Shown here piece after piece: positions 43,044-57,472 of a DNA stretch of 64,000 bases. The stretch is from Thermodesulfobacteriota bacterium (lineage in GTDB: Bacteria > Desulfobacterota_D > UBA1144 > Nemesobacterales > UBA2774). Below the pieces are notes generated by a model. The model saw nothing but the letters and a program-made list of their open reading frames with translations, had not been told where the DNA came from and ran no database searches. The translations under genes and the position numbers were made by a program. Position 1 is the stretch's first letter. Every line of letters begins with the position of its first letter. The DNA lies in NCBI GenBank assembly GCA_040754335.1, contig JBFMCV010000005.1:186001-250000 (forward strand). Direction: 5' to 3'.

Positions 43044-43876
43044 CTACAGTACGTTTCTATCCAGCGAGCGGTACTGTATCGCTTCCGAGATGTGATGGGC
43101 AAGGACGTTTTCCGAGCCTTCGAGGTCGGCTATCGTTCTCGATACCTTGAGAATCCTGTCATAGGCTCTCGCGCTTAGTCCGAACTTGTCAATCGCCATT
43201 TCGAGGAGCTTAATACCCTTCTCGTCGGGTTTCGACACCCTCCTCACCATCGACGGGGACATCTGCGAGTTCGAGTGTATCTTCGACCTCTTGAACCTCG
43301 CCTTCTGTATCTCACGCGCGCGGTTGACGCGGTCTTTGATAAGAGACGAGCCTTCTCCTCCCGCTTCGTCCGCCAGCTCCTTGTACCTGACGGTGGGGAC
43401 CTCAACGTGTATGTCTATCCTGTCGAGGAGCGGCCCTGAGACCTTGGCCCTGTATTTCTGAATCTGGATAGGGGTGCACGTGCACTCTTTCTGGAGATCC
43501 CCGTGATAGCCGCAGGGGCAGGGGTTCATAGCAGCGACGAGCATGAAGTTAGCGGGGTATGTGATCGAGGTAGAGGCCCTCGATATAGTAACCGTGCCGT
43601 CTTCCAAAGGCTGGCGCATGACTTCCAATACATTTTTACGGAACTCTGGAAGCTCATCGAGAAAGAGGACTCCGTTGTGAGCGAGGCTGACTTCTCCGGG
43701 CTTCGGTATCGCGCCGCCACCTATCAGACCCGCGTCGCTTATCGTGTGATGAGGGGCGCGGAACGGCCTCGTCGCGTATAACGATGAATGGTCGGGGAGG
43801 AGACCGGAGACCGAATAAATCTTGGTCGTCTCAAGCGCCTCCTCGAAGCTCATGTCGGGGAGGATCGTAGGTACTA
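43044..43876 (-). pseudogene. comM: comM (yifB) Mg-chelatase-like ATPase, C-terminal fragment cut by island
   Basis: C-terminal half of the ComM/YifB AAA+ ATPase, a helicase-like competence factor. The in-frame comM sequence begins with the RLPTILP-like region (read as [20 protein letters not shown]), directly after where the Walker A motif GPPGSGKT should be. It then continues normally: [28 protein letters not shown] (Walker B), [25 protein letters not shown] and the end [10 protein letters not shown]. The N-terminal domain and Walker A (about 240 residues) are missing, because DNA beyond about 43876 belongs to the recombinase-bearing island. An internal ATG at 43853 could start a 269-residue product without ATP-binding loop, which should be inactive. 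Confidence 0.9.
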
Positions 43877-45540
43877 TTCTTATCTAATTTGGTAATCTTT
43901 CCTTCCTCAATAAACCTTTGCAAAATATCTGGGTTCCATTTTAATTTATAGTCACAAGTAGGACCTCCCGGTCCGTCCAGCTCATTATCCTCCTGATAAT
44001 CCACAATGACTTTATCCATTAACATAGATTCAACTAGCAGTTTTCGGTCTTTTAAGTTTAAATTAAAAATAGCCTTTCTTATTTTGCTTTTGAGATTTCT
44101 GTTATTGTGTAAAAAATTCAAAATATCCTTCTCGCCTTCATTTAAAGAAACTAACTCTTGATATTCGAGTTTGGTGTCATCTAAACTACCTTTGAGAGCT
44201 AATATCTCGTCTTTGTTTATTCTTAGTCTATCATTTAACTCACCGATGTTTATTTCATCTTCTTCGGTTAATTTAAAGAGATTATTTCTTGCTCTCTCCT
44301 TTTTATTAAACTCCGATTCTAACCTGGCTATTGTTTCCTTTAATTGATTGATTTTATCCTCGTGTTTTTTAGAATTAAGCAGGTGCTCTAAGATTTTGCT
44401 CGGATTTAACGAAAACTTCATTAAAATATCGCTCCAAACAGCGTTTTCAATATTCTTAGTATAAATATAAGGCAGACTGCATTTCTTTTTGCGTCCCGAG
44501 GCTATCAAGTTCTTTTTACTTGTCCCCGCCCAATAACAACCATAATAGCGTGGTGCAGTGCCATCTCTTCTAATATTTCCTACTCTTGGCTTTATTCGTC
44601 CTCCACATCGTCCACATATAAGAACGTCACGCAATATTAAATCATCTGTTTTATCAGAACGTTTAGATTTGCGTTTATTAAATTCTGTCTGTTCTTGTAT
44701 CTTATTCCATTGATTTTTAGGGATTAAAGGTGGTATCTGATAAGCGATATATTCAGAATTAGGTTTTTTCTTTTTACTTCTTTTTGAACCAGCCCCCCTT
44801 CCTCCATCTTCATATACGTACTGATTAACAATATAATTGCCATAGTAAGCAGGATTTTTTAGTATGTAACTAATTGTTGTGCTACTCCAATTTGCACGTT
44901 TACATTTAATTCCATTTTTCTTCAGCCTTATACACATGTCTTGAAAAGACATTTTCTGATTCAAATACATATCAACTAGCAAGTTATAAACCTTGGCTTC
45001 ATCTTCATTGATTTCAAGCTGTTTCTTTTCTTTATTCCAGTAGTAGCCGAATGGTGGCTTGCCAATAAATGTGCGTTGCTCTTTCCACCTAGCCATCTTG
45101 TTTTCATGCATTTGCTCCTTAATAGTATCACGCTCCCATTCTGCTAATAGGGCTAAAAATCCAGCTATCATTCTGCCTGTAGTAGTTGTTGGGTCTATGT
45201 TTTCTTTTAAGCTTACTAAAGTTATACCGTTCTTTTCCATTTCATGAGACAAGTTCATATATTCTCTAGCATTGCGTGCAAATCTTGATAGCTTTGTGAA
45301 GATAACAACTTCGAACTTTCCTTGGTTAGCGTCGCTAATTAATCTCTTAAAATCAGGTCTGTATTCAATCTTAGCTCCAGAAATTCCCTCATCGGCATAT
45401 ATGCAGACTAATTCCCAACCTTTATCTTTAGCAAAGTCTTCTATCTGTTGCCTTTGTGTTGAGAGACTTTCACCTTCTTTGACCTGCATAGTCGTAGAAA
45501 CCCTTATGTATCCAACTGCTTTCTTATGATTTTTGTTCAT
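43831..45540 (-). CDS. Large serine recombinase (integrase)
   Basis: Site-specific recombinase of 569 residues. Resolvase catalytic domain (about 7-150) with the nucleophile Ser15 in [10 protein letters not shown], the ARG-type block [15 protein letters not shown], and the recombinase domain (about 175-280, including [20 protein letters not shown]). A zinc ribbon follows ([10 protein letters not shown] ... CYWAG ... CSLPY) and a long coiled coil (about 390-480) used for synapsis. The start ATG has a GAGGGCGG site. The final dozen or so codons ([13 protein letters not shown]) are read from comM DNA in a different frame, so the attachment site lies inside the 3' end of the gene. It is the likely agent that split comM. 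Confidence 0.93.
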
Positions 45541-45710
45541 CTACCGCCCTCTTAAATGGTATATGCATAATTATACAATTTATGATTTATCAATCACCGT
45601 GGCCTCTCGGCAATCAACCCTATTAAACTTATTATACTCATGCAGTGAAGTTTGCGTTCGCAGGTATTTGGCTGAATTTTAGATGCATGATAATCCCTTT
45701 ATATACAGGA

Positions 45711-45911
45711 GGTCGGAAACATCGCGAGGAAATGTTACAACCCGGAGCAGATAATAGGGCATTTAATCCAGGCAGATGTTCACTCTTCTCAGGGAAGAGC
45801 GTATCGGAGATATCCAGGGAGATAGGAGTAACGGAGAACACTTATTACCGCTGGCGAAATGAACAAGACGGGAAAAGGCAAGTGAGGACTTGCTCCCATG
45901 TGGAATACTAA
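45711..45911 (+). pseudogene. IS3-family transposase OrfA relic (frameshifted)
   Basis: The block GKSVSEISREIGVTENTYYR followed by WRNE (about 45791-45864) is the helix-turn-helix of IS3-family OrfA. The preceding EQIIGHLIQADV sits in another frame (from 45745), and KHREEMLQP in a third, so at least two frameshifts have occurred. No OrfB follows. The rest of the 45541-46193 spacer has no other recognisable gene. Confidence 0.65.
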
Positions 45912-46193
45912 ATTATTAAATGCTGTCTTGCATTAATCCTTTAGTTAGCATCAAAATCAAAACTTGTTTTCAATTGAGCGAGCATATATGATGTGTTTAT
46001 TTGAGGTAGTTTCTTTTGTGTTTCCAGAGTCTTATAGTGATTATGATAAAAACTGTGTTCCACACGTGATGGAAAATGTGAATTGAAGCATCTTGAATAA
46101 TTATGTTTAGTAGTTCATTATAAAAAAGGCAAAGTGCAGAAATTATTAAGATTTTTGAGCACAGAATGCTTATTTTGAAGGAGATAATAAACA

Positions 46194-46667
46194 ATGAAAA
46201 AACTAGCTATATTCACAGTGATATTGTGTGGATTCCTGGGTGGATGGGGAAGTTCTAGTGTTCCATCCTGCGATGATGAAAATATTAAAAAGGAAGTAGT
46301 TGCTATGGTAACAAGTCGCATGAAAGACCAATTAGTGCCTAGAGCTGTTATTGCGGCGGGAGACGCAGTATCTAGATTTTTTTTATATACCTATGAGGAA
46401 TACGTAGTACTTAAGAATACATCCGAGGATGAAACAGAAAGGGAATTTGCAGCGAAAGTTGTTAGATTTATAGATGAATTAACGGCAAAAGTGACTATAA
46501 CTCTAAAATATATTAGAGTAAATCAACGCTTTGATGATATTCAGAAAATTGAATGTGGTGGAAATATATTTTTCCTAAAAGACAATGATTTAAATACTCC
46601 TATTATATATACATTGCAATATACTGAGGATGATAACATTTATATTGAAATTTATGGACTTGAGTAG
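46194..46667 (+). CDS. Hypothetical exported protein
   Basis: A 157-residue protein with a probable signal peptide (MKKLAIFTVILCGFLGGWG), then a mostly alpha-helical acidic region (EVVAMVTSRMKDQLVPRAV; ETEREFAAKVVRFIDEL) and a C-terminal beta-rich end (IIYTLQYTEDDNIYIEIYG). Not recognised. It starts with ATG after AAGGAGATAATAAAC. AT-rich codon use matches the island, not the host. It has no operon partner; relics lie on both sides. Could be a cargo or immunity-type surface protein, but nothing in sequence says so. Confidence 0.65.
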   Translation: MKKLAIFTVILCGFLGGWGSSSVPSCDDENIKKEVVAMVTSRMKDQLVPRAVIAAGDAVSRFFLYTYEEYVVLKNTSEDETEREFAAKVVRFIDELTAKVTITLKYIRVNQRFDDIQKIECGGNIFFLKDNDLNTPIIYTLQYTEDDNIYIEIYGLE

Positions 46668-46698
46668 TTTTCTGCCCCTGCATATTAAGAATGGTGGG

Positions 46699-46773
46699 AT
46701 GAGCTTGTATAAGAAATACAGACCGAATAATTTAAATGGTGTAATTCACAAGGGTGAGGCTTTAAAGATATAA
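46699..46773 (+). pseudogene. Clamp-loader-like N-terminal relic
   Basis: A 24-codon frame reading MSLYKKYRPNNLNGVIHKGE then a stop. The YKKYRP opening followed by a GE-type block is the N-terminus of DnaX/RFC small-subunit-like clamp loaders. The rest of the gene is absent, so this is a truncated fragment, possibly of phage or plasmid origin. The match is short. Confidence 0.35.
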
Positions 46774-46794
46774 AGAAATGTATTTAATAAGCCT

Positions 46795-46900
46795 AATCCG
46801 CGCATGCATAAATCTATAGTGACCCTCCATCGCCTGCTTAATTGTCTCAGTCTTGAACTCCTATATGTACTTCCGGTTCGAGATAGACTCCTCCTCTCTT
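46795..46900 (-). pseudogene. IS3-family OrfA relic
   Basis: On the minus strand the frame reads NRKYI, stop, EFKTETIKQAMEGHYRFMH, the N-terminal helix region of IS3-family OrfA, with an in-frame stop. The remainder of 46774-47213 holds no other recognisable gene apart from the methyltransferase promoter. Confidence 0.45.
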
Positions 46901-47149
46901 GCTTCCAATTTTACCTCTAAATCTGTCTAGCAAACCGGGGGAAGTCCAATCCCATCTCCTTCGTTTCATGTCTACTCTCCCCCATTGTTTACTACAGATA
47001 TTTTAATAGCTTATTTCCAATAGCCTCTTAATGGGGAGCAGTATAATCAAACTTATAATCTAGACCTTTTAAGAGTGGTAAGGTTAGTTTGTTAACGGAA
47101 TGAAATATAACCCATACTTTTAACCAAGCCAATTTTCAAAAACACAGTA

Positions 47150-47179
47150 TTGACAATAGATTATTCTAAGTGCGATAAT
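47150..47179 (+). promoter_or_regulatory. Methyltransferase promoter that decides its start codon
   Basis: Perfect -35 TTGACA (47150-47155) and -10 GATAAT (47174-47179) with an 18-bp spacer. The -10 overlaps the upstream ATG at 47178, so transcripts begin after it and translation must start at the ATG at 47214, which has GGGAGGAGAGGAG upstream. Confidence 0.6.
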
Positions 47180-47213
47180 GAGAGCCAACATTAGCAGGGA
47201 GGAGAGGAGTGTG

Positions 47214-50045
47214 ATGTTAGGCGGGAAAATCACTGAAAGAACACTTTATCATCCTTTGATGCAAATTCTTAATGAAAATAATGCAAGTGGCATCAGTGAG
47301 TTAAGATATAATGGAGAGCCAGACATTGTTTTTGAATTCTTGGGTGAGAAATGGCTACTTCCAGTTAAAATTGGACAGAACAATAAGATTTTAACAAACA
47401 ATTTAATACAAGCGGAAAGGCACAGAAGAGAATCCAGAATTAATAATTGCACTCTACTTTTTTTTCCAGATTCAATAAGAAAAACTCATCCATCTGAAGA
47501 AGCGGTCGAAAGAGCTGTTAGAAACAGCGAATGTAAAATAATTGTTCTTTCTGACTTAATACAAAGTGAATATATCAGTAAATTTCCTGAGTTCCTTTTT
47601 GAACTTTCTACTGAAATTCAAGTTCTTAAGAATCAGAAGCAACAAAAATATTTCTCGTTAGATTTTGTAGTCCCAATTTTACAAACACACCTCCAAGACA
47701 TCATGCATAGCCTCAAACTTCAAGAAAGTCAAGTTATGCAGGTAGTAGCGGATAAATCTCTATTTAAATCTCTAGGACATATAAAAGCGGATGAGAATCA
47801 AGTAGTAAGATTTCTGGCAGCATATGTTTTTACAAGTCAAATTCTTTTCTTAAGGCTTTTTCAAAGTGCTTTGGGTAAACCGCAATTTATTCCGCCCGCT
47901 ACACGTATAAAACTTAGAGACGCATTTAATGAAATTTTAGAAATAAATTATGAGCCTATATTTTCTATAGATGTTCTTGAAGCAATTCCAGATGCCTTTA
48001 TTAAAGATACTTACGACCTTATACACGGTTTAAGGATTGAGAATATTAAGTACGAGCTTCCGGGACGGATTTTCCATGAGCTTCTTCCACCTGAGATAAG
48101 GAAAATGCTTGCAGCATTCTATACCAGACCCTATGCTGCGGATATTCTTGCGGGCCTATCCATCAATGATTATAACGCCAGGATTTTTGACCCTGCATGT
48201 GGTTCTGGAACAATATTGGTATCCGCATATAAAAGAAAAAAGCAATTAGCTTTTGATGAGCATCTTCTACACAAAAAGTTCTGTGAAGAAGATATACACG
48301 GTGCTGATATTATGCCTTTTGCTGTCCATCTTACTGTAACTAATCTTGCATCCCTAGATGTGGCGACAACAATAAATGAAACACGGATTACTGAAGCTGA
48401 TAGTTTGAAACTATTTGTGGGTGACAAATATACCGCAGGAGTAAGAATAGGAGAACTTTTCCCAAGTTTGGTAAAGGGCAAAAAAGCCAAAGGAGGCGAA
48501 CATGAGTTTAAACTTAACGAAATGGATGCTGTTCTTATGAACCCACCTTTTACTAAAGTGGAAAGAGGTATAGGGAAATATATCTTAATGAATAGATTTA
48601 AGGATGAATGCGGTGGAGAAGTAGGTCTTTGGGGGCATTTCATTTTTCTTGCGGATAATTTTCTGCGCCCAGGAGGTATATTAGGTGCAGTTATTCCTAT
48701 CAATGTACTACGAGGGAGAGAAAGTGCTAAGGTTCGTGAATTTTTGTTCTCGGAGTATACCCCCCTTTATATCTTGAAGCTCGTAAATAATTATGCCTTT
48801 TCTGAAGGAGCAGAATATAGAGATATTATTTTTATTGCACAGAAGAAAAAACCATTGGATGGCCATAAAGTAAAATTTTGTCTTATTAAGAGGGATATAA
48901 CGAAATTTTTAGACAAAGACATAAAATCCATTATAACGCAAATAAAAACCCAAGAGCATCTTCGTTCTAATGAGCTCGATATAAACTCTGAGACTGTTGC
49001 TGATATACGTTCTAGAATGGACAATTTGATGTGGTTTATAGGTATTTCTGATTTCGTGGGTAAAGATTCTATAACTCAATTTTTTCCTGAGATTCTCAGT
49101 AATTTGAGGAAATTCCCTAATAGTTATTCTAAAGAGGGATATAGATTTGCAGAAGGTATTTCTAAAGCCATTTTAGCAACAAGAAGATTAAGTGATGCCA
49201 GAGTTGAAAAAGCATTTTTGTTTTTTGATAAAGAGGACAAAAATAATATTTCTGCTCGAACACATAGTGGAATACATTACAGTCTTGAAAAGGATGCGTT
49301 TGTTCCCGGTCTGCGCACTACGGTTTCTTTAAACAATATGGATATCACAAGCTCTCTAGATTACATTGCCTGTTCTTCTTATAAGGAATTTTTGAGAGTT
49401 AAGAAAGCATGTGGATTTAATGGAAAAGTTAATTGGACTGTAATACAAGATGCCCTTTCTAAAATCAAAACAAATATTGCCATTGCTCGTAGAATTAATC
49501 CATTTTCTCCCAATATACATCTTGTCTCTTTTTTTTCACCGGTTTATTTCCATCCCGGAGACCAATTTAAAGTTATATTAGAAAACGATATTAATACCGC
49601 CAAGGCAATTTGTGTCCTTTTAAATTCAATATTATTTTTTGCTCAGTTTTTTCTTTTAAAGGAAGAGAGCACTGGACGGCAAGTAGATATAAGGGGTTCA
49701 GATTTTGATGAGATGTATCTATATCCGAATTCTAAATTACATATCACGTCCCTTGCTAAAATATTTAACAGATTTAGCAATGTTGACTTTCCTTGTCTTG
49801 CTGAGCAATTTGATAAAAACTTTTTTGCCAGATATGAAGAGTGGTGGGAAAGAGAAATGGATAGGGGAGAAAAACACCTGATTTCTGTGTTAAACAAATC
49901 AGTGTCCCCTTCGGATGTTAGAATTGATTTTGATTTAGCTGTATTAGAAGCATTGGGTATATCAGTAAAGAGAAAGGAACTAATTAAGCTTTATGAAATC
50001 TTTGTAAATGAAATGATTATAACAAGGGGACTTAAAAAAGATTGA
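47214..50045 (+). CDS. Stand-alone N6-adenine DNA methyltransferase, type IIG-like
   Basis: A 943-residue protein from the ATG at 47214. The middle is a gamma-class N6-adenine methyltransferase: AAFYTRP (about 301), SAM-binding DPACGSGTILVSAY (326-339), and the catalytic NPPF (443-446, in AVLMNPPFTK). A target-recognition-like C-terminal half (about 600-943) follows. The N-terminal domain (1-140) has the outline of a PD-(D/E)XK nuclease: GEPDIVFEF (Asp37), then LPVKIG, where the expected acidic-x-Lys is Pro-Val-Lys (50-52). The nuclease may therefore be degenerate. No separate restriction subunit is adjacent. It could be an orphan or anti-restriction methylase, a type IIG enzyme, or part of a phage-defence set. 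AT-rich like the island. Confidence 0.82.
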   Translation: MLGGKITERTLYHPLMQILNENNASGISELRYNGEPDIVFEFLGEKWLLPVKIGQNNKILTNNLIQAERHRRESRINNCTLLFFPDSIRKTHPSEEAVERAVRNSECKIIVLSDLIQSEYISKFPEFLFELSTEIQVLKNQKQQKYFSLDFVVPILQTHLQDIMHSLKLQESQVMQVVADKSLFKSLGHIKADENQVVRFLAAYVFTSQILFLRLFQSALGKPQFIPPATRIKLRDAFNEILEINYEPIFSIDVLEAIPDAFIKDTYDLIHGLRIENIKYELPGRIFHELLPPEIRKMLAAFYTRPYAADILAGLSINDYNARIFDPACGSGTILVSAYKRKKQLAFDEHLLHKKFCEEDIHGADIMPFAVHLTVTNLASLDVATTINETRITEADSLKLFVGDKYTAGVRIGELFPSLVKGKKAKGGEHEFKLNEMDAVLMNPPFTKVERGIGKYILMNRFKDECGGEVGLWGHFIFLADNFLRPGGILGAVIPINVLRGRESAKVREFLFSEYTPLYILKLVNNYAFSEGAEYRDIIFIAQKKKPLDGHKVKFCLIKRDITKFLDKDIKSIITQIKTQEHLRSNELDINSETVADIRSRMDNLMWFIGISDFVGKDSITQFFPEILSNLRKFPNSYSKEGYRFAEGISKAILATRRLSDARVEKAFLFFDKEDKNNISARTHSGIHYSLEKDAFVPGLRTTVSLNNMDITSSLDYIACSSYKEFLRVKKACGFNGKVNWTVIQDALSKIKTNIAIARRINPFSPNIHLVSFFSPVYFHPGDQFKVILENDINTAKAICVLLNSILFFAQFFLLKEESTGRQVDIRGSDFDEMYLYPNSKLHITSLAKIFNRFSNVDFPCLAEQFDKNFFARYEEWWEREMDRGEKHLISVLNKSVSPSDVRIDFDLAVLEALGISVKRKELIKLYEIFVNEMIITRGLKKD

Positions 50046-50109
50046 CTCAATTTGTAAGTTCCCCTAAAAGCAGACATGTGATAAGTAGGACTGTCTGTCA
50101 AAATGAGCC

Positions 50110-50205
50110 TCACCCAAAAGCTGTACTGGGTAAATTTGAGATTCCTGGCTTTTTGGAATGCATTTTCACATACTCCTGCGGCGTCAGATTACCCAAAACC
50201 CAAAA
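50110..50205 (-). pseudogene. IS3-family transposase OrfB C-terminal relic
   Basis: On the minus strand the frame reads LGNLTPQEYVKMHSKK then PGISNLPSTAFG and a stop, the standard C-terminus of IS3-group integrases (GxLTPxEF). Nothing upstream encodes the DDE core. Adjacent bases (50085-50110) may be an IS end. Confidence 0.6.
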
Positions 50206-50305
50206 TATCTTATAGAGAATATAAATAATCTATAAAATATCCTTGTCTATAGAGTAATATTCTATATAATATTAGCCATAGACTATACAATTTGCGGAGC
50301 ATAAA

Positions 50306-50959
50306 ATGAATTCTACCACTTATATCATAGACAGAGAAAAGATTTTAGACCTAGAACAAAGAGCAAGGCTGATAAAAACATGTCGAGACAAGGCTGAACT
50401 GGATTTACTGCATGGTCGTGAAACATGGGTAAAACGTTACATGTTGGTTGATATAGCATTATTTACTGGTTTACGGGTAGCTGAGATTGCTAATTTAACA
50501 ATCGGTGATATCAATATAAAAGCCAAAGACCCCTATCTAATTGTTAGGAAAGGGAAAAGGGGAAAAAAAAGAGATGTTTATTTGGATAAAGAACTTGTCA
50601 CACATATTAAGTTTTTTATCAATTGGAAGAATAAGACAATGATGGAAAAAGTTGACGTCGATTGTCCTCTATTTACTGGTAGAGATGGAAAACATTGTGC
50701 AGTAATAACCCTGATGAAATCTTTTAAAAGAGCCATCGAAGATTCAAACCTGCCTTTGCATTATTCAATACACAGTGCACGGCATACATACGCAACTTTT
50801 TTATTACACGCTACAAACAATCTTAGATATGTTCAGAAACAACTTGGACATAGTAAAATAAGCATGACTGCTTTATATGCAGATGTATTACCATCTGAAA
50901 ATGGTAACCTAGCTAATAAGATTAGAAACAATAATCAAAAATATCAGGGAACGCTGTGA
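50306..50959 (+). CDS. Tyrosine recombinase, catalytic domain only
   Basis: A 217-residue XerC/D-type recombinase. The full catalytic set is present: Arg57 (TGLRVAEIANL), Lys in KGKRGKKRDVYL, His156 and Arg159 (IHSARHTYATFL), His182 (KQLGHSKIS) and Tyr191 (ALYADV). The N-terminal SAM-like core-binding domain (about 90-100 residues in XerC/D) is missing, so the protein is shorter than usual integrases. Small tyrosine recombinases of this type exist in plasmids and invertons, so it may be functional. AT-rich. A good -10 (TATAAT) lies about 40 bp upstream of the ATG, and the next gene starts one base after its stop. Confidence 0.85.
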   Translation: MNSTTYIIDREKILDLEQRARLIKTCRDKAELDLLHGRETWVKRYMLVDIALFTGLRVAEIANLTIGDINIKAKDPYLIVRKGKRGKKRDVYLDKELVTHIKFFINWKNKTMMEKVDVDCPLFTGRDGKHCAVITLMKSFKRAIEDSNLPLHYSIHSARHTYATFLLHATNNLRYVQKQLGHSKISMTALYADVLPSENGNLANKIRNNNQKYQGTL

Positions 50960-50960
50960 A

Positions 50961-51221
50961 ATGCTCGGTGCAGATACCATCATACAACCAGCCGTCAGTG
51001 TCCTAGACAGCATTAGTTATTTCAGTAGGAACGACCTCGTGCTGACCTATCATAATCCGGATTTAGTAGTTTGTTTCGCCAAGTCGTTTATTCAAAGTGC
51101 TATCCCTACATACATGTTTAAGAGGGCTGAGCTTAAAGGAATAGAGACTAAGGCGGTAGATTATGAGAGTATCTTAAAACGTGATGCATTTGATATTCAA
51201 ATAAGACCTGTACCACATTGA
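50961..51221 (+). CDS. Hypothetical protein coupled to the tyrosine recombinase
   Basis: An 86-residue frame whose ATG begins one base after the recombinase stop, so translational coupling is likely. No family recognised. Composition is mixed (SVLDSISYFSRNDLVLTYHN; AVDYESILKRDAFDIQIRPV) with no membrane helix. Its base composition is less AT-rich than its neighbours. It could be a small accessory factor, or a fragment of a larger gene. Confidence 0.5.
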   Translation: MLGADTIIQPAVSVLDSISYFSRNDLVLTYHNPDLVVCFAKSFIQSAIPTYMFKRAELKGIETKAVDYESILKRDAFDIQIRPVPH

Positions 51222-51377
51222 CCAGGTTACACCCACACCCTGAGTATCATTGGTTGCATTGAATTAATGTCATCATTCTCCATCAGGGCGCATTGAAGTA
51301 CACCATCCATAGGTTTACACTATCTCCATAACAACCCCGAAAGGAGGCTGCTTGGTCTTTGCGGACGGCTTATACGA

Positions 51378-52082
51378 GTGGATAAACTAAATGCAATACT
51401 GACAGAGAAAAGACACGTAACTTCTGCATACCATGCACATTTAGGAAGGTATTGGAGACTTTATGGAGAATCTAGATTACTACATGCACCGTTAAGTTAC
51501 TCCGCCTTTGAATTTCGCTTAGCTATGGAACGCTCTCTTCTTGAATTATTCTATCTTATGAGCGACCGAAAACTCTCTGATGAAGAATTGAACTATGATT
51601 TCGGTCAAGTTCTTAAATCCATTTATAAATTTCTAGGTGGGAGAAAAGTCGGTAAAAAAAGATTAATGCGTTGGATGGAATTTAACTTATTATATCAGAA
51701 ACTTCTAGGCACTAAATTGGGCTATCCGAAAAAAAAAGTTGCCATAATCGACGTTGAAAAAGTGAATAAATTTTGGTGCAGCTTGAGCAAATATTGCCAT
51801 CGCCAATTACTACCAGAATCTACTTGGAATGATAAGAAATGGATATTAGGGGGATACAAGTTATTAAATCAGGTCGAGACCTACATTTGGGAAATTATGG
51901 TAAATTCAAGTTTAGGTTGGCTTGACCCAAATTCTCTCCCTCCAGAAATACAGGCAGTGGTAGAAGATTTTATAATTGAGCGAATAGACATCAAAATCCT
52001 AGAAGGTAGATTGCAATTAATGATTCCAGTATTGATGCAAAGAGGAATAAAAAGAATCAATATTATTACTCTTACGACATAA
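51378..52082 (+). CDS. Hypothetical helical protein
   Basis: A 234-residue protein from a GTG start at 51378. Mostly alpha-helical and basic: SYSAFEFRLAMERSLLELFY, KSIYKFLGGRKVGKKRLMRW, CSLSKYCHRQLLPESTWNDK, and a C-terminus of alternating hydrophobics (IERIDIKILEGRLQLMIPVL). No catalytic signature recognised. It is followed by the convergent nuclease-like gene. AT-rich codon use. In an island with a methylase and nuclease it is a candidate for an uncharacterised defence or regulatory factor, which is only inference. Confidence 0.6.
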   Translation: MDKLNAILTEKRHVTSAYHAHLGRYWRLYGESRLLHAPLSYSAFEFRLAMERSLLELFYLMSDRKLSDEELNYDFGQVLKSIYKFLGGRKVGKKRLMRWMEFNLLYQKLLGTKLGYPKKKVAIIDVEKVNKFWCSLSKYCHRQLLPESTWNDKKWILGGYKLLNQVETYIWEIMVNSSLGWLDPNSLPPEIQAVVEDFIIERIDIKILEGRLQLMIPVLMQRGIKRINIITLTT

Positions 52083-52171
52083 GATATTATTTATTACAGG
52101 TTGCAAGTAACCTCTCCATCGTCTATAGAAGACATCATAGTGGGTTTACGGATAAGTCCTTAATATGTATT

Positions 52172-52630
52172 TCACGGCAAAAATTCCGAGAATATCTTCC
52201 AGTTATTTTCCCACCTCGAATCTAAGTCTGTCGGAAAGAATCTCCTCTCCCAGTTAGTAGTTCCATGAGCATGATGTTTGATACAAGCTTTGCCTACCTC
52301 TTGTTTTAAAGCAATCCAATATCGAGGGCTTTCATTAGTCTTAGGTGAACCCAGCCACACAAAAACAACGTACAGATTACTGTTTGGTAGTTGCATCCAA
52401 GATTCCGCACTTGCGCTAAGGATAAAAGTTGAACTCCTATCTGGATGACAGGATTTTACTTGAATAAACCCTAGCAATGTCCCGTCTTTTTTGCCAATGA
52501 TTATGTCATCATCCGAAAAGTTCTCAGGCAATAGTGCATTGGGAATACCCCGTTTCGACAACTCGGCGGATACATACAACTCACCAGCGTGCCCTCCTAA
52601 CTTTTTAATCCATTGTGGTGTCCTAGCCAT
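52172..52630 (-). CDS. PD-(D/E)XK nuclease-like protein
   Basis: A 152-residue protein with the layout of small PD-(D/E)XK endonucleases: Glu17 in GHAGELYVSAELSKRGI, an acidic cluster (FSDDDIIIGKKDG, 39-50), and the core strand FIQVKSC giving Gln57-x-Lys59. Later GTTNWERRFFP and a Trp-rich end are similar to group I homing or very-short-patch type nucleases. It could be a restriction, repair or defence nuclease. No methylase is in the same operon, although the island encodes one 2 kb upstream. The next gene upstream on the same strand is a membrane protein 38 bp away. Confidence 0.65.
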   Translation of the reverse strand: MARTPQWIKKLGGHAGELYVSAELSKRGIPNALLPENFSDDDIIIGKKDGTLLGFIQVKSCHPDRSSTFILSASAESWMQLPNSNLYVVFVWLGSPKTNESPRYWIALKQEVGKACIKHHAHGTTNWERRFFPTDLDSRWENNWKIFSEFLP

Positions 52631-52667
52631 ACTTCACCTCATTGTACATATATTGGCTCATTCGTAC

Positions 52668-53081
52668 TTAATAATTTCCCAGAATCGAAGGGAAAAAATA
52701 CGCAATAGCCAACAGTATGATGAAAGCTATAAAGGATGATACTAATGAAGCAGATGCCCTATTCCTATAATCCGATGAAAAAATATACAAGTATGGATTA
52801 TCCTTGTACCTTTTATCAATTTTTCCTTTCTTTGTTGTGTGTTCATTTTGACCACCAAACACTATTAAGCAATAAACTATAAAACTGACCCCATATGTAA
52901 AAATAATAACTTCATAAGTACCTGTAATCTGTTGAACTATAATCCCATATCGTAATACTCCCCAAAAAATTCCAGGTAATATAACACCAACCATAACATT
53001 AAAAAATGGACCTCCAGTATTAATTAGATTTAATATGAAGAGCATTGTAATCATTAATAAAATACTTATAAGTATTGACAT
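52668..53081 (-). CDS. Hypothetical membrane protein
   Basis: A 137-residue protein with four likely transmembrane helices: about 4-22 (LISILLMITMLFILNLI), 28-46 (NVMVGVILPGIFWGVLRYG), 56-75 (TYEVIIFTYGVSFIVYCLIVF) and 113-131 (LVSSFIAFIILLAIAYFFP), plus a basic cytoplasmic loop (TTKKGKIDKRYKDN). Not recognised. It lies between a truncated metallopeptidase frame (4 bp upstream) and the nuclease-like gene (38 bp downstream), all on the minus strand, so the three may share a transcript. Confidence 0.6.
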   Translation of the reverse strand: MSILISILLMITMLFILNLINTGGPFFNVMVGVILPGIFWGVLRYGIIVQQITGTYEVIIFTYGVSFIVYCLIVFGGQNEHTTKKGKIDKRYKDNPYLYIFSSDYRNRASASLVSSFIAFIILLAIAYFFPSILGNY

Positions 53082-53084
53082 TGG

Positions 53085-53234
53085 TTACCCCCATGTAAGA
53101 TAAGATTTTGATAGAAACAAGAACATCTTCCCGTGGTGCGGATACCGGAGGTGCAGGAGCTCATGAACTATCACCACATCCCTTTTCTTCTTAGGTTCTT
53201 CCAATAAGTGTGTGGTGGCATACATTTTCTCCAT
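53085..53234 (-). pseudogene. Truncated zinc metallopeptidase (YgjP/DUF45-like) relic
   Basis: A 49-codon frame contains RDVVIVHELLHLRYPHHGKM, the HExxH zinc motif with the downstream HxxF-type spacing of YgjP/SprT-like metallopeptidases. The N-terminal substrate-binding half is missing; the reading frame is open a little upstream (GVRLVKVTTF) but has no family match. It is probably a decayed gene end, though a mini-protease cannot be excluded. The rest of 53235-53403 has no recognisable gene. Confidence 0.5.
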
Positions 53235-53403
53235 AAATGTGGTGACCTTAACTAATCTAACTCCAAAACCTCTGAATCACAAGAGACTGTCATAACTCAC
53301 AAAAATCTCTTTATAAAGGATTCAGCATGCTATAAGAGAATGCTTGTTATTTAATCCCTTATGTTTTAAAATGCGTGTATCTTCTTAGCCAAGGATAACC
53401 ATC

Positions 53404-54054
53404 ATGAGAAATGTATCTATCATAACCCGAACTATAATTTTGGTAACCATCTTTACATTTTTCCTTTTCGTTCACTTCGCAAGCTCACTGGAATTCTTCA
53501 ATATCAATGGGGTAACTTACGAACTACAGGAAATTGACATCGGAAGACAGCTTGGTTGTAGACCGGGGACATTTACTGCTGTGGTTATAAGGAATTCTGA
53601 ATCCCAAGAAGAGCTATGGTCTTACCCCAGCTCGACTGAGGTAAAGCAGAACTACTTTCATAACAATGAGTGCCCTTCCCTTGGAGCCGGTTACAAGGAA
53701 ATAGAACGTATTTGGAAAAGGGGAGAACCTAATAATGTGGATTTTATGGTTAAGTCGACTCGTTGTGCCGCAGCTTGTTATACTGGTTTGGTAACAATAT
53801 TCCGGTTTGATGGGAAGAATGTAACACAGGTTTTAGCTTTGAACGAAAAGTACATAACGGTTGATTTTATGGAGCCTGATTTTACGGCAATATATCAAAT
53901 ATATGATGGGGAATGCAACGCATGTCCTACGAAATGGGGTCGAGATGTATATAAGTGGAATGGGCAAACATATAAGCGTATTAAGAGTCAGGTCTCTAAA
54001 ACAAAGAGTGCTGAGCCACCATGGGAACATCAATTGCCAGAATTGAAGTATTAA
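53404..54054 (+). CDS. Hypothetical exported Cys-containing protein
   Basis: A 216-residue protein with a signal peptide (about 1-28, ILVTIFTFFLFVHFASSLEF region). The mature part is beta-rich with six Cys (QLGCRPGT; NNECPSL; STRCAAACYTG; DGECNACPTKWGRD), suggesting disulfides in the periplasm. No family recognised. Its stop is 3 bp before the next ATG, so the two genes probably form an operon. AT-rich, island-type codon use. Confidence 0.62.
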   Translation: MRNVSIITRTIILVTIFTFFLFVHFASSLEFFNINGVTYELQEIDIGRQLGCRPGTFTAVVIRNSESQEELWSYPSSTEVKQNYFHNNECPSLGAGYKEIERIWKRGEPNNVDFMVKSTRCAAACYTGLVTIFRFDGKNVTQVLALNEKYITVDFMEPDFTAIYQIYDGECNACPTKWGRDVYKWNGQTYKRIKSQVSKTKSAEPPWEHQLPELKY

Positions 54055-54057
54055 ACT

Positions 54058-54786
54058 ATGACAAATAGAATTACCAAACTTATAACATCCAACCAATATC
54101 ATCTGTGGACCGACGCTCTCCATGCAAGAGCACTAGCTAGGCAGTCTGACAATGAATGGGACAGAGGGGCATATGTCAGATGGGCTGTGAACACAGCTTG
54201 GACAGTGTTTGAAGTAGTATGCGAGGATGTAACAGGTGCATCTGGATTAGGGAATAGATTTAAGGATAATCTCAATGAAGCTCTCGCAGATGGTGGGTAT
54301 CCAGTTATTAAATGGGGAGAGGGTATATGGCAGAGAGTGGCTAATCTATATGAGGAGCGTAAAAGGTATACCCATAGGGGTATAACAGACGCTGATTTAT
54401 TCCCCGAATTATCGGTGGCCGAGAATGCGATTTCCGTAATAAGAAAAGCTATAATCAACATACACAATCACGTAAGCAAGGAGCCACCGGATTGGGCTTA
54501 CGATGACGCTGATTATGGTTTGATTGAAAGTGGAGCAAAATTATTTTCACCTAGTATACATCTTACACATATGAACGCTAAAGAATTTCCTCACGAGGAC
54601 TCCATAAGGATAGTCATTGTATCCCAAGGGAAAGAAACTGAAACTGACGTTTTTCCACCAGGTGCATCTTATCAAGCTCGTATTGAAGAGTTGATTAAGG
54701 GTTCGAATGTTCCAATGACTGCTATTAAGGTTTACCAAGGTGATACTTTAATTGAGGAATACGATGTACGGATAAGAGGTTCGTGA
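54058..54786 (+). CDS. Hypothetical protein with possible HEPN-type RNase motif
   Basis: A 242-residue cytosolic protein translated 3 bp after the previous gene. The N-terminal half (1-140) is alpha-helical and contains NLYEERKRYTHRGIT, in which Arg101-x4-His106 fits the Rx4-6H catalytic signature of HEPN ribonucleases found in toxin-antitoxin and defence systems. Helices before and after it (YVRWAVNTAWTVFEVVCEDV; SVIRKAIINIHNHV) match the HEPN four-helix pattern. The C-terminal part (150-242) is beta-rich. The HEPN reading is a hypothesis from one motif and helix context, not a firm family match. Confidence 0.5.
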   Translation: MTNRITKLITSNQYHLWTDALHARALARQSDNEWDRGAYVRWAVNTAWTVFEVVCEDVTGASGLGNRFKDNLNEALADGGYPVIKWGEGIWQRVANLYEERKRYTHRGITDADLFPELSVAENAISVIRKAIINIHNHVSKEPPDWAYDDADYGLIESGAKLFSPSIHLTHMNAKEFPHEDSIRIVIVSQGKETETDVFPPGASYQARIEELIKGSNVPMTAIKVYQGDTLIEEYDVRIRGS

Positions 54787-55508
54787 GGTGTTAGACACCC
54801 TTTATGAATAGTTCTCTGCTACTCCCCATTTATAAGCTCTCGTAAGACTTTGGAATGTGCTAATTTCGGTGGCAAATATTAGCGTAAGCAGGCTTATACG
54901 GCGACTTTTTACAAAAGTAGGGGGTTTGTGCGTGTTTAAACTTAAAAACCGTTTTAAGCGGCTAATTTGGGGATTTAAGTAGCAGTGAATTTGAATGAAA
55001 TAAAGATGTGGATGGTGACAAGATGTTAGCGGTTATACAGCCCCCCCTAATTTATCCTGTCCGTGTTTTAAAGGAACCGGGAACGAGCGGGAAAGGTCGC
55101 TTCATCAGAGTGTACTAACACTGCCTAGTCCATGGCTTATTTGCATCATCTTGTTAAATTGACTCTAAAAGGTATTTAGTGGAAAAACAGTCAGGAAATC
55201 GAATAGAATCCGCCGAATAGTATTTATTCTTCACTAGGAAAACGAAATGAGCAAACATTATTCTCATTTACAAGATTAACAAAAGTACTCCATAGCAATA
55301 GATACAGATTGATTAGTGCACAGATTCTTCTAAATCATTGGAGAATTATCTGGAGTATCTAACTTGGAAGGTGAACCGCTTTCTGAGGAATTGACACAGA
55401 TGGCGTATGCTAAAAAACGGATTGATACACGAGAAAATTATCATCAACCTAATACTGATATTGGATGTAAGATATTCGTAAATTCTTTCAAAGATACAAA
55501 CAGAAAAA
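54787..55508. other. Non-coding AT-rich stretch, possible plasmid-type origin
   Basis: No convincing gene over about 700 bp. A hairpin-capable CTTAAAA/TTTTAAG pair lies near 54949-54967, and a C-run (CCCCCC) near 55042. Given the HUH replication initiator 1 kb to the right, a double-strand origin for rolling-circle replication could be here, but no nick-site consensus was recognised. Confidence 0.3.
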
Positions 55509-55628
55509 TTAACTATTCAGTCTGTAAGCATCCTCAGAATAAGAAATCGTCTTATTCCCCATTATGATAACGCATCTATCAAAAGGGGCATCAACACCTG
55601 CCGTTGTCAATTCATTTGAGGTCATCAT
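55509..55628 (-). pseudogene. SF2 helicase / restriction-subunit relic
   Basis: A 39-codon frame reads MTSNELTTAGVDAPFDRCVI then IMGNK. The segment SNELTTAGVDAP resembles motif V of superfamily 2 helicases in restriction R subunits (usually LTTGVDAP, with one inserted Ala here). The flanking motifs are absent, so it is a fragment of a lost restriction or helicase gene. The match is short. Confidence 0.35.
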
Positions 55629-55836
55629 CCGCCTGCCTCCGATGTTGTATACCCCATAAAAGACCATAGATAAATGCTACTAAGCTCAACTTGTAGTTTA
55701 CAAGAAAAATCAACTCAAATATTTCATTATTATGATATACCTATACTATTCAAGAGAGGAAAATCCTCAACTTGTTTCGGTCTGAATGTAAGTAGCAATC
55801 GACTAACCCACTAATTCAGTGGTCTCGAATGCAAAT

Positions 55837-56415
55837 TTACCCCTCTCGTTCTATTCGAGGGATGAAAATATCAGGTTCAACCCCTTTGCGGATGTGCTTC
55901 GTCATGTAACGAATTGCACCCCCGGCTGGGTCGTAAGGCTTTATCACTGCATGCCCATTAACAATCCGGTCAAGCAAAGGTCCAGCCTTATCTTTTCGTT
56001 GTCCGTTAGTCTTCCAGAGCTTAGCCATGTACTCCCTGTTAATCTCTTTTAGCCCTTTAGCACCTAGCAGGGCGTGAAAGTGAAGGATTCCCCTTTTCTG
56101 ATACTCTATAGAGAGCGCATACCGAATGCCAAGCCCTTCCTGTTTATACTCCTCGCCGAAGAGTTCAAGGTTAAGAGACTCAAGCCACTTCTCGAATCGC
56201 TTCTTAGCAATCCAGGGCTTTATCTCGTCTCGAAATGTTAAAGTGACAAACAGGTCGTAGTCATAACGAGAGATAAATTCTCGCCAGGCCTCTTGCAAAT
56301 CGAGCTTTATCCAGCCTGTTCTGAGAGGCTCATACTCGCTTTGTTTTTGCTTATTCTTAGGCATATTATTACCTAAGCTATTACCATTCCACTTATTTCT
56401 GCTTTTCACTCTCAT
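55837..56415 (-). CDS. HUH replication initiator (rolling-circle Rep-like)
   Basis: A 192-residue protein from an ATG with GGGGGAGGA upstream. Motif 1 is LFVTLTFRDE (55-64), motif 2 is the metal-binding HUH HFH at 112-114 in GILHFHALLG, and motif 3 is AIRYMTKHI with Tyr170 and Lys173. This is the full set of rolling-circle Rep and relaxase-type HUH endonucleases with one catalytic Tyr. It would nick a plasmid or phage origin and prime replication of an excised circle. It lies 200 bp downstream of a broken excisionase on the same strand. Confidence 0.8.
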   Translation of the reverse strand: MRVKSRNKWNGNSLGNNMPKNKQKQSEYEPLRTGWIKLDLQEAWREFISRYDYDLFVTLTFRDEIKPWIAKKRFEKWLESLNLELFGEEYKQEGLGIRYALSIEYQKRGILHFHALLGAKGLKEINREYMAKLWKTNGQRKDKAGPLLDRIVNGHAVIKPYDPAGGAIRYMTKHIRKGVEPDIFIPRIEREG

Positions 56416-56614
56416 TCCTCCCCCTCTTTATCTGCAAATTCAGTAAGTTTTTTAAATTTAAATCCCATGCTCACTACTCCACTAGGAAAACGCGATAAAA
56501 TTTTTTAGGCCCTTAGTATCTATCTAGGCGTGAAATTGCAATATGTGCCCCGCTTGTGATTCACGTAAGCGACCGAATACCGACTGATTCAAATTAATAC
56601 TGTTCGGGATATTT

Positions 56615-56815
56615 TTACTCACCTTTCCCTCTGCTTATATTCAAATCGCATCTGAATGTCTTTAACCAATTTTCAAAATCCTGTATTGGGATTAAAACTT
56701 TTGAACCGTATTTCAACATAGGTAATTCTCTTCTAGCTGAGTGTCGATATTATGTCCATTTACTCAATCCAGAGTACTCCGCAGCTTCGGAAATCGTCAT
56801 ATATTTTTGTTCCAT
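56615..56815 (-). pseudogene. Excisionase/HTH_17 protein with in-frame TAA
   Basis: A 67-codon frame starting ATG at 56815 reads MTISEAAEYSGLSKWT, TAA (56750-56752), YRHSARRELPMLKYGSKVLI and PIQDFENWL, then ends at 56615. The two parts together form a complete MerR-like excisionase (helix-turn-helix, then xxGxxxxIPxxxFExWL). The stop occupies the position where the family usually has Leu or Ile (TLYR), so a single TTA to TAA change explains it. The broken gene would leave the element unable to excise by this factor. Confidence 0.75.
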
Positions 56816-57110
56816 AAATACATCTCCGGCGGCTTTTTTGGCCTATTTGTTTTGCCCCTATACTTTTATTGTACTCATGGGTAGACGTTTGGATTTCCTA
56901 GTATTTATAAAATAATAAAAATTTGTTTTGGATTCGCGTTGACCCGGGTTTTGACGTTTACTTCAAATAAATGCATTCTGAATACTCCTACACTTAGAGA
57001 TGGGTGAAAAGAAAAATCTCTTACAGTCACTTTCTTAGTGGTTTATTTTGTGAGAAGAGAAGAAGATAGATTAGATTAAAATAGTAGGGACTATTTGAGG
57101 GAATTAATAT
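56816..57110. other. AT-rich spacer at right end of island
   Basis: No gene seen. It separates the excisionase pseudogene from tRNA-Gln. It presumably contains the right junction of the island, but no repeat of comM or of the tRNA 3' end was recognised. Confidence 0.4.
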
Positions 57111-57184
57111 TGGCTGGGGCACTAGGATTCGAACCTAGACTGATGGATCCAGAGTCCATAGTACTACCATTATACTATGCCCCA
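57111..57184 (-). tRNA. tRNA-Gln (anticodon CTG), CCA encoded
   Basis: Read on the minus strand: acceptor TGGGGCA pairs with TGCCCCA, discriminator G, encoded CCA (57113-57111). The anticodon stem ATGGA/TCCAT encloses CTCTGGA with anticodon CTG. The T arm CTAGG/CCTAG encloses TTCGAAT. The 3' end faces the island, a common arrangement at tRNA attachment sites. Confidence 0.92.
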
Positions 57185-57292
57185 GTAGACCTTAAAGTAT
57201 TTATAATTATGCCTTTTCCGTCAAGTATCTTGATAGCATTCGCCCATTTGATAAAATAGAACTGTAGAAAAACAAGCGAAAGGAGATATTGC

Positions 57293-57472
57293 ATGCCCGC
57301 TAAAACTCTTACCGTAAAGGCGAAAAACAAGGAAGAGCTCAAAAAAAACGTGGAAAAGGCTTTAAAAGAAGCGTCCAAACACGGCATGATTTTTGTAAAA
57401 CAGGGGTATAAGGAAAACAGGGTCAAAAAATCCAGGGGCGAATACGAGATTGAAATCGAGGTACACTCTTAA
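57293..57472 (+). CDS. Small basic hypothetical protein
   Basis: A 59-residue frame with ATG at 57293 and AGGAGA 7-12 bases upstream. Lys/Glu-rich: KTLTVKAKNKEELKKNVEKA, then IFVKQGYKENRVKKSRGEYE and a beta-type end IEIEVHS. Not recognised; the outline is a helix followed by strands. It lies 12 bp upstream of queF on the same strand, so it is probably co-transcribed with it. Host-like composition. Confidence 0.65.
   Translation: MPAKTLTVKAKNKEELKKNVEKALKEASKHGMIFVKQGYKENRVKKSRGEYEIEIEVHS

What the first reader, a model, noticed from the sequence alone, without database searches (positions are those of the whole stretch)
55837..56815. HUH replication initiator beside an excisionase killed by one stop codon
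Rep has all three HUH motifs and looks intact. The upstream excisionase is complete except for a TAA (56750-56752) at a position usually Leu/Ile. The element can perhaps still replicate if excised but may be locked in place, or the strain may read through or suppress TAA.
Basis: partly seen in the sequence, partly recalled or inferred. Interest (0 to 1): 0.5.

Follow-up and report, generated by a model that had tools for sequence, protein, structure and literature searches.

The report
Broken excision gene inside mobile island
A small DNA-replication gene and a neighbouring DNA-binding gene broken by one stop codon sit at one end of what looks like a 13-kb piece of mobile DNA in a bacterial chromosome; the parts are of known kinds, but the mobile piece is also tied to a chromosome inversion that split a host gene in two.

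Summary
A 192-aa HUH initiator (PF23343) lies at 55837-56415(-); upstream, 56615-56815(-), a 66-codon excisionase/HTH_17-family frame continues on both sides of an in-frame TAA. The integrase disrupted comM; comM's 5' half is now 31 kb away, inverted, and the halves join in frame exactly at the core. A sister island in another genome (integrase 72% identical) sits in prxQ with the same kind of arms. The broken gene is the first gene inside the end opposite the integrase, where small serine-integrase excision factors can lie (phiJoe). Against this, the sister island lacks it, and in two other genomes such genes precede larger, replication-type genes, so it may be a Cox-like regulator of Rep instead. 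'Locked in place' is plausible but unproven: integrase and attachment sites look intact. TAA ends 14 of 49 window genes, so recoding is unlikely. Ordinary parts; the integrase-linked inversion is the most interesting aspect.

The parts
43872..57086 (.). integrative island, 13,215 bp between the two attachment cores
   Evidence: att arms and cores; A+T-rich block; no island DNA aligned in the fetched stretches of G029, G030, G033, G035 C9, G039, G040
43870..43871 (.). left attachment core (GG on + strand), comM 3' half on its left
   Evidence: comM halves join in frame at this core
43872..43895 (.). integrase-side attachment arm
   Evidence: 23 of 24 identical to the arm next to comM 5' in G031
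57087..57088 (.). right attachment core (GG on + strand), 22 bp from tRNA-Gln
57063..57086 (.). far attachment arm, inverted copy of the integrase-side arm
   Evidence: 15 of the 17 nt next to the core; 3 of 20,000 shuffles of the 293-nt end zone reach 15; 16 of 24 over the longer arm
55837..56415 (-). Rep, HUH replication initiator, 192 aa, PF23343
56615..56815 (-). excisionase/HTH_17-family gene (66 codons) broken by an in-frame TAA at 56750-56752
43831..45540 (-). large serine integrase, 569 aa (Resolvase, Recombinase, zinc ribbon); its last 12 codons and stop lie in comM DNA
   Evidence: the last point read directly from the sequence
50306..50959 (+). tyrosine recombinase, 217 aa
   Evidence: Pfam Phage_integrase E=2.1e-27; 76% identical relative in G035
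47178..50045 (+). cargo: N6-adenine methyltransferase / type IIG-like gene, 955 aa
55055..55245 (.). non-coding stretch shared with the G035 island (76% over 73-75 bp, then scattered identity)
43044..43869 (-). comM 3' half (host gene disrupted at the left core)
57111..57184 (-). tRNA-Gln beside the right end; an 18-mer of its 3' part occurs once in the genome

Best explanation
The two genes are the excision/replication end of a serine-integrase island. SHOWN: the reading frames and families, the broken HTH frame, the integrase abutting a disrupted comM, the in-frame fit of the comM halves at a two-base core, and the intact comM and different gene order in relatives. INFERRED: the far end at 57087; that the HTH protein, first gene inside the far end, either switches the serine integrase to excision (RDF/Xis), or acts as a Cox-like regulator of the Rep operon with a share in excision; and that after excision Rep nicks the circle and starts rolling-circle replication. 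With the HTH frame stopped at residue 22 of 66, inside the HTH domain, regulated excision (and perhaps Rep control) is most likely lost, leaving an island with an intact-looking integrase and Rep but no switch. Also inferred: the integrase took part in a past rearrangement, because the three junctions (comM 3'/island, island/tRNA-Gln flank, comM 5' scar) share the core and the 17.7-kb host segment between tRNA-Gln and comM 5' is inverted relative to its flanks.
For: Families and broken frame. Att arms: left GG at 43870-43871, right GG at 57087-57088, arms 15 of 17 inverted. The G035 island has arms identical over the first 16 nt at both ends and sits in prxQ, whose halves give a near-full AhpC-TSA match when joined. 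G031 has the same arm joined to comM 5'. comM halves join in frame as [14 protein letters not shown]. Relatives with uninterrupted comM, and with a Pal-like gene near tRNA-Gln. Location: the HTH start is 272 bp inside the far core; in phiJoe-type elements the int gene and the small RDF gene lie next to attL and attR (PMC5311408, passages). PMC4111918 Table 2 lists the phiRv1 RDF as 'Rv1584c/Xis', 73 aa (passage). [quoted passage not shown] Other decay in the island: a transposase remnant near 45.8 kb.
Against: G035, whose island has an integrase 72% identical, has no HTH match at E 0.001; the first gene inside that island's far end is a 92-aa protein without family match. A cognate RDF would be expected to follow its integrase. 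The validated phiJoe RDF shows no HTH_17/excise match. The far arm is only 16 of 24 over the longer arm; a 16 of 19 match was reached in 3 of 60 shuffles of the whole island; with up to 2 mismatches the 16-nt arm pattern has 6 places in the genome against 17 for the reversed control. No nick site was found: no inverted repeats of 9 nt or more within 80 bp in 54780-57115. No excised form could be looked for.
Confidence: 0.5

Rival explanations
1. The HTH gene is not an excision factor but the regulator (or DNA-binding partner) of Rep in a two-gene replication module captured by the island. The stop then changes Rep expression or replication, not excision.
For: In G033 a 68-aa HTH_17 gene lies 5 bp before a 568-aa Phage_GPA/PF23343 initiator. 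In G007 the closest uninterrupted relative (48%) lies upstream of a 759-aa gene on a contig with terminase-like genes (these two functions read by eye, no profile run). The G035 island shares both recombinases, but G035 has no match to HTH or PF23343.
Against: A phmmer scan with this HTH found no match in the frames of 50 loci that hold Rep relatives; it also missed the HTH_17 gene of G033, so it is insensitive. The gene is the outermost one at the att end, where RDF genes can lie.
Confidence: 0.35
2. The stop is a sequencing or assembly error and the HTH gene is intact (independent of the choice between the two readings above).
For: One codon breaks an otherwise uninterrupted frame with a plausible ribosome-binding site (sequence). 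The genome is an assembly of 20 contigs.
Against: Other decay in the island (transposase remnant) makes a real pseudogene unremarkable.
Confidence: 0.1
3. Rep-HTH is the end of a separate element integrated in tRNA-Gln by a tyrosine recombinase (AICE-like), not of the serine-integrase island.
For: tRNA-Gln is 296 bp from the HTH start and a tyrosine recombinase lies about 5 kb away.
Against: An 18-mer of the tRNA-Gln 3' part occurs once in the genome even with 2 mismatches. A serine-integrase arm lies between HTH and the tRNA. RepSA scores below its cut-off.
Confidence: 0.06
4. TAA is read through or suppressed and the HTH protein is made.
For: Both sides of the stop match the family.
Against: 14 of 49 window genes end in TAA. 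The two tRNAs in the window are Gly and Gln; the rest of the genome was not checked.
Confidence: 0.03

Closest known systems
Large serine recombinase islands in comM (Mg-chelatase/ATP-dependent protease gene)
   Same: LSR with Resolvase, Recombinase and zinc-ribbon domains, integrase gene at one end, two-base core, comM as target (PMC10083194, passages)
   Different: comM halves are 31 kb apart and inverted; the second end sits beside tRNA-Gln
phiJoe integrase / gp52 RDF and phiRv1 integrase / Rv1584c (Xis)
   Same: int and a small candidate switch gene lie at the two ends of the element and would flank attP in the circle (PMC5311408, passages)
   Different: gp52 shows no HTH_17/excise match; the candidate here is broken and not shown to be an RDF; Rv1584c itself was not compared
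Pfam PF23343 REP_ORF2-G2P initiators (inovirus, microvirus and small-plasmid Reps)
   Same: HUH and Tyr motifs, score above cut-off
   Different: 24-28% identity to the three phage/plasmid relatives aligned; shorter C-terminus; no phage structural family among the 7 island proteins scanned with PHROGs
P2 Cox / gene A arrangement and pSAM2-type AICEs (recalled)
   Same: an excisionase-family HTH protein near a HUH initiator
   Different: a serine integrase at the att site instead of a tyrosine integrase, and no tRNA att duplicate

Membership tests
Large-serine-recombinase integrative island | LSR with N-terminal resolvase, recombinase and zinc-ribbon domains | tested here: met
   PF00239, PF07508, PF13408 all above cut-off
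Large-serine-recombinase integrative island | target gene restored in frame when the flanks are joined at a two-base core | tested here: met
   comM halves; sister island in prxQ. The comM flanks are not collinear here
Large-serine-recombinase integrative island | second attachment arm and core at the other end | tested here: met
   57070-57088: 15 of 17 plus GG; 3 of 20,000 shuffles of the end zone. Moderate strength: 3 of 60 whole-island shuffles reach the 16 of 19 score
Large-serine-recombinase integrative island | excision as a circle | not testable with these tools
   no reads
HUH initiator, REP_ORF2-G2P (PF23343) | profile match above curated cut-off | tested here: met
HUH initiator, REP_ORF2-G2P (PF23343) | HUH motif and catalytic Tyr | tested here: met
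   H112, H114, Y170 invariant in 17 of 17; the second Tyr common in relatives is His here
HUH initiator, REP_ORF2-G2P (PF23343) | HUH fold | tested here: inconclusive
   model mean pLDDT 74 (77 of 191 residues at 90 or more, 50 below 50); Foldseek no E of 0.001 or less; VIA-align best Z 7.9, rmsd 3.6, 111 aligned, 2x3g SIRV1 ORF119, then AAV Rep domains (Z 7.0-7.4), with ribosomal S6 and other unrelated folds in between and close behind
Excisionase family DNA-binding protein (TIGR01764 / HTH_17) | profile match above cut-off | tested here: met
   with X at the stop
Excisionase family DNA-binding protein (TIGR01764 / HTH_17) | uninterrupted reading frame | tested here: not met
   TAA at 56750-56752
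RDF of this serine integrase | gene conserved beside related integrases | tested here: not met
   no HTH match at E 0.001 in G035, the only other genome where the integrase-bearing island could be read whole; the G031 contig ends in the integrase
AICE (pSAM2 type) | integration in a tRNA gene with a duplicated 3' end | tested here: not met
   one copy only

The most novel reading that the evidence does not exclude
A serine-integrase island with a near-palindromic attP acts on several sites of one chromosome and remodels it: two insertions in inverted orientation (or an attL/attR x attB reaction), inversion of the 17.7-kb segment between them, and precise loss of one copy leaving a two-base-core scar at comM 5'. 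An HTH-Rep operon would couple excision to rolling-circle copying, and the stop codon fixed the rearranged state.
Probability: 0.3. Interest if true: 0.5.

Novelty: new member of a known kind. Interest (0 to 1): 0.35.

Why it matters
It turns a 'broken excisionase next to a Rep' into a bounded island with its integrase, both attachment sites, a defined target and a sister island in another genome. Excision factors of serine integrases are hard to predict (PMC5311408, passage), and this is a testable candidate. The three core-sharing junctions are a small example of a serine integrase tied to a chromosomal inversion. The stop codon itself is ordinary decay.

Tried and rejected
tRNA-Gln as att site: rejected, no second copy of an 18-mer of its 3' part. 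First idea that the comM 5' junction carries the island's other arm: rejected, the arm is absent there; it was found at 57.07 kb instead. Inovirus or microvirus provirus: Rep hits are weak (5 phage records at 24.6-34.0% identity; 3 plasmid records at 31.7-36.8%), and none of 7 island proteins scanned with PHROGs gave a structural family. Upstream small ORFs, listed for 29 of the loci, looked HTH_17-like by eye only in G033, so the trio is not supported. Conserved non-coding stretch: no Rfam match; folding no better than shuffles in the window (z -0.62 and -0.21) but z -2.25 and -2.99 in G035; the 17-nt pattern gave 52 viral stretches, about what I estimate by chance (my estimate, no tool). Promoter and terminator scans at 54700-57300 found no more than shuffles. 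Close Rep relatives: genome contigs 0, viral contigs 0, 1 of 57 phylum genomes, the own one; PF23343 in 2 of 57. PDB by sequence: only a chance-level hit for Rep, none for HTH. Tyrosine recombinase in phages at E 1e-10 and serine integrase in plasmids at E 1e-30: no match. Tyrosine-recombinase relatives in G031 and G032 are at a contig start or short. PADLOC: only the methyltransferase among 6 window proteins matched. Paper searches (listings) gave background; only PMC4111918, PMC5311408, PMC3783163 and PMC10083194 were opened, as passages. The host phylum is unnamed here and I do not assign it. Gene names such as QueF, Pal-like, phosphate-permease-like and prxQ were given by eye, except that the joined prxQ matched AhpC-TSA.

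Full report
What was checked. Rep is an open frame at 55837-56415(-), 192 aa, and matches Pfam PF23343 (REP_ORF2-G2P) at E=9.7e-12, above the curated cut-off. Aligned with 16 relatives fetched from genomes and viral contigs, H112, H114 and Y170 are invariant. The second Tyr that at least 90% of the rows have in YxxKY is His here, so this is a one-tyrosine motif. An AlphaFold model is confident in the core only (mean pLDDT 74; 77 of 191 residues at 90 or more, 50 below 50). Foldseek gave nothing at E 0.001 or less. The structural realignment puts SIRV1 ORF119 first (Z 7.9, rmsd 3.6, 111 residues) and AAV Rep domains next, but ribosomal S6 and other unrelated folds are mixed in at nearly the same Z, so the fold evidence is inconclusive.

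The broken gene. Reading 56815 to 56618 on the minus strand with X at the TAA (56750-56752) gives 66 residues with scores above cut-off for HTH_17 and TIGR01764 'excise'. The two pieces match their own halves of the profile when scanned apart, each weakly. An uninterrupted relative, 48% identical over 56 aa, is in G007. The gene starts 272 bp inside the right end of the island described next.

The island. The region 44.0-57.5 kb is A+T-rich (GC 0.31-0.43 per 500 bp, against 0.49-0.57 in the 2.5 kb to its left and 0.53-0.62 in the 1.5 kb to its right). Its left end is a large serine integrase, 43831-45540(-), which abuts the 3' half of comM (43044-43869, minus strand). Comparison with G031 and G035 shows the attachment arm: TACTATTCTTATCTAAT follows a two-base core at the left end (core GG 43870-43871, + strand). 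G031 has the same arm (23 of 24) joined to comM 5'. In G035 an integrase 72% identical sits at the end of an island whose two ends carry inverted copies of the arm, identical over the first 16 nt. That island lies inside prxQ: the joined halves match AhpC-TSA over 123 of 124 positions. In the window, the inverted copy of the arm lies at 57070-57086, followed by the core GG at 57087-57088, 22 bp from tRNA-Gln: 15 of 17 match, reached in 3 of 20,000 shuffles of the 293-nt zone where the end was expected. In a 19-nt comparison (16 of 19), 3 of 60 shuffles of the whole island did as well, and over 24 nt it is 16 of 24; so the far end rests on its place and core as much as on similarity. In the whole genome the combined 16-nt pattern occurs without mismatch only at these two places, but it was made from them; with up to 2 mismatches there are 6 places against 17 for the reversed control.

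The inversion. comM 5' is not next to comM 3' but 31 kb away, at L005 10081-10782 (contig C5:260081 onwards, + strand). Joined at the core, the halves read in frame as [14 protein letters not shown], as in G030. In G030 comM is uninterrupted and followed by the phosphate-permease-like gene, and the Pal-like region aligns from about 0.46 kb beyond tRNA-Gln. G029 has a Pal-like gene, tRNA-Gln, QueF and comM in order on one contig. So here the segment from tRNA-Gln to comM 5' is inverted relative to its flanks. The comM 5' junction keeps the core CC but continues into DNA without the arm. Two routes fit: recombination of one island end with a second attB, or two insertions in inverted orientation, homologous recombination between them, and precise excision of one copy. 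[quoted passage not shown] Either route means that the integrase acted again after the first insertion. Of 16 family genomes, 11 had a match to the comM 3' half; in the 10 with a near-full match the open frame is 510 aa or longer in 7 and 306 aa or shorter in 3 (G000, G035, G040). G035's comM carries a different serine recombinase; G040 was not examined further.

How it most likely works. Serine integrases join attP to attB alone but need an RDF to excise efficiently (PMC5311408, PMC4111918, passages). In phiJoe-type integrated elements the integrase gene and the small RDF gene lie next to attL and attR and flank attP in the circle (PMC5311408, passages). Here the integrase is at one end and the HTH gene is the first gene inside the other, which makes it a candidate RDF, with Rep next to it to copy the excised circle. 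Against this, G035, whose island has close relatives of both recombinases, has no HTH match, and an unrelated 92-aa protein is in that place. The validated phiJoe RDF does not match HTH_17/excise. In G033 an HTH_17 gene lies 5 bp before a gpA-type initiator, and in G007 the HTH gene precedes a 759-aa gene. A Cox-like regulator of the replication operon that also acts in excision would reconcile both, but this is inference. I give 0.5 to the excision-switch or combined reading and 0.35 to a pure regulator of Rep; a sequencing error (0.1) is independent of that choice.

What the stop does. It falls at residue 22 of 66, inside the HTH domain. A downstream ATG with a purine-rich stretch before it could restart translation but would lack the helices before it (sequence, read by eye). 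TAA is a working stop in this genome: it ends 14 of 49 genes that I marked in the window, 11 of them outside the island. So the HTH protein is most likely not made in full. Whether the island is therefore immobile depends on the role of this protein; att sites, integrase and Rep look intact.

What is not known. No reads, so neither the base call nor circles could be tested. No second genome of the species. The nick site was not found. A non-coding stretch at 55055-55245, shared with the G035 island (76% over 73-75 bp), may be an origin or a site for the tyrosine recombinase; no test distinguishes these.

Verdict. The parts are of known families; the assembled island, its target and the linked inversion are the added value. 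Interest 0.35.

Noticed in passing
window 43044-43871 and L005 10081-10784: comM is split by the island; its halves are 31 kb apart in inverted orientation and join in frame at a two-base core, so a 17.7-kb host segment has been inverted.
   Followed up: yes
window 43831-43871: The integrase frame has no stop before its own attachment core; its last 12 codons and stop come from comM DNA. The G035 integrase likewise ends in prxQ DNA, so the C-terminus should change between integrated and circular forms (read from the sequence).
   Followed up: partly
window 55055-55245; G035 C8:49740-49990: Non-coding stretch conserved between two otherwise different islands, with a perfect 8-bp outer stem in G035 that is degraded in the window.
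   Followed up: partly
window 50101-50959: Tyrosine recombinase of 217 aa; its upstream region from about 50101 is conserved too in G031 and G032, where the gene is cut by a contig start or short.
   Followed up: partly
window 45780-45911: Remnant of a transposase (PF01527 HTH_Tnp_1 above cut-off on a 40-aa piece; IS3-type is recalled), another broken gene in the island.
   Followed up: partly
G035 C9:51231-52607 (L113): A second, distant serine recombinase (29% identical) interrupts comM in G035 near the Walker A region; comM is a repeated target in this family.
   Followed up: partly
window 55229-55244 and 56477-56492: A 16-nt direct repeat (15 of 16) brackets the Rep gene; a similar motif is in the G035 stretch. 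May be chance.
   Followed up: no
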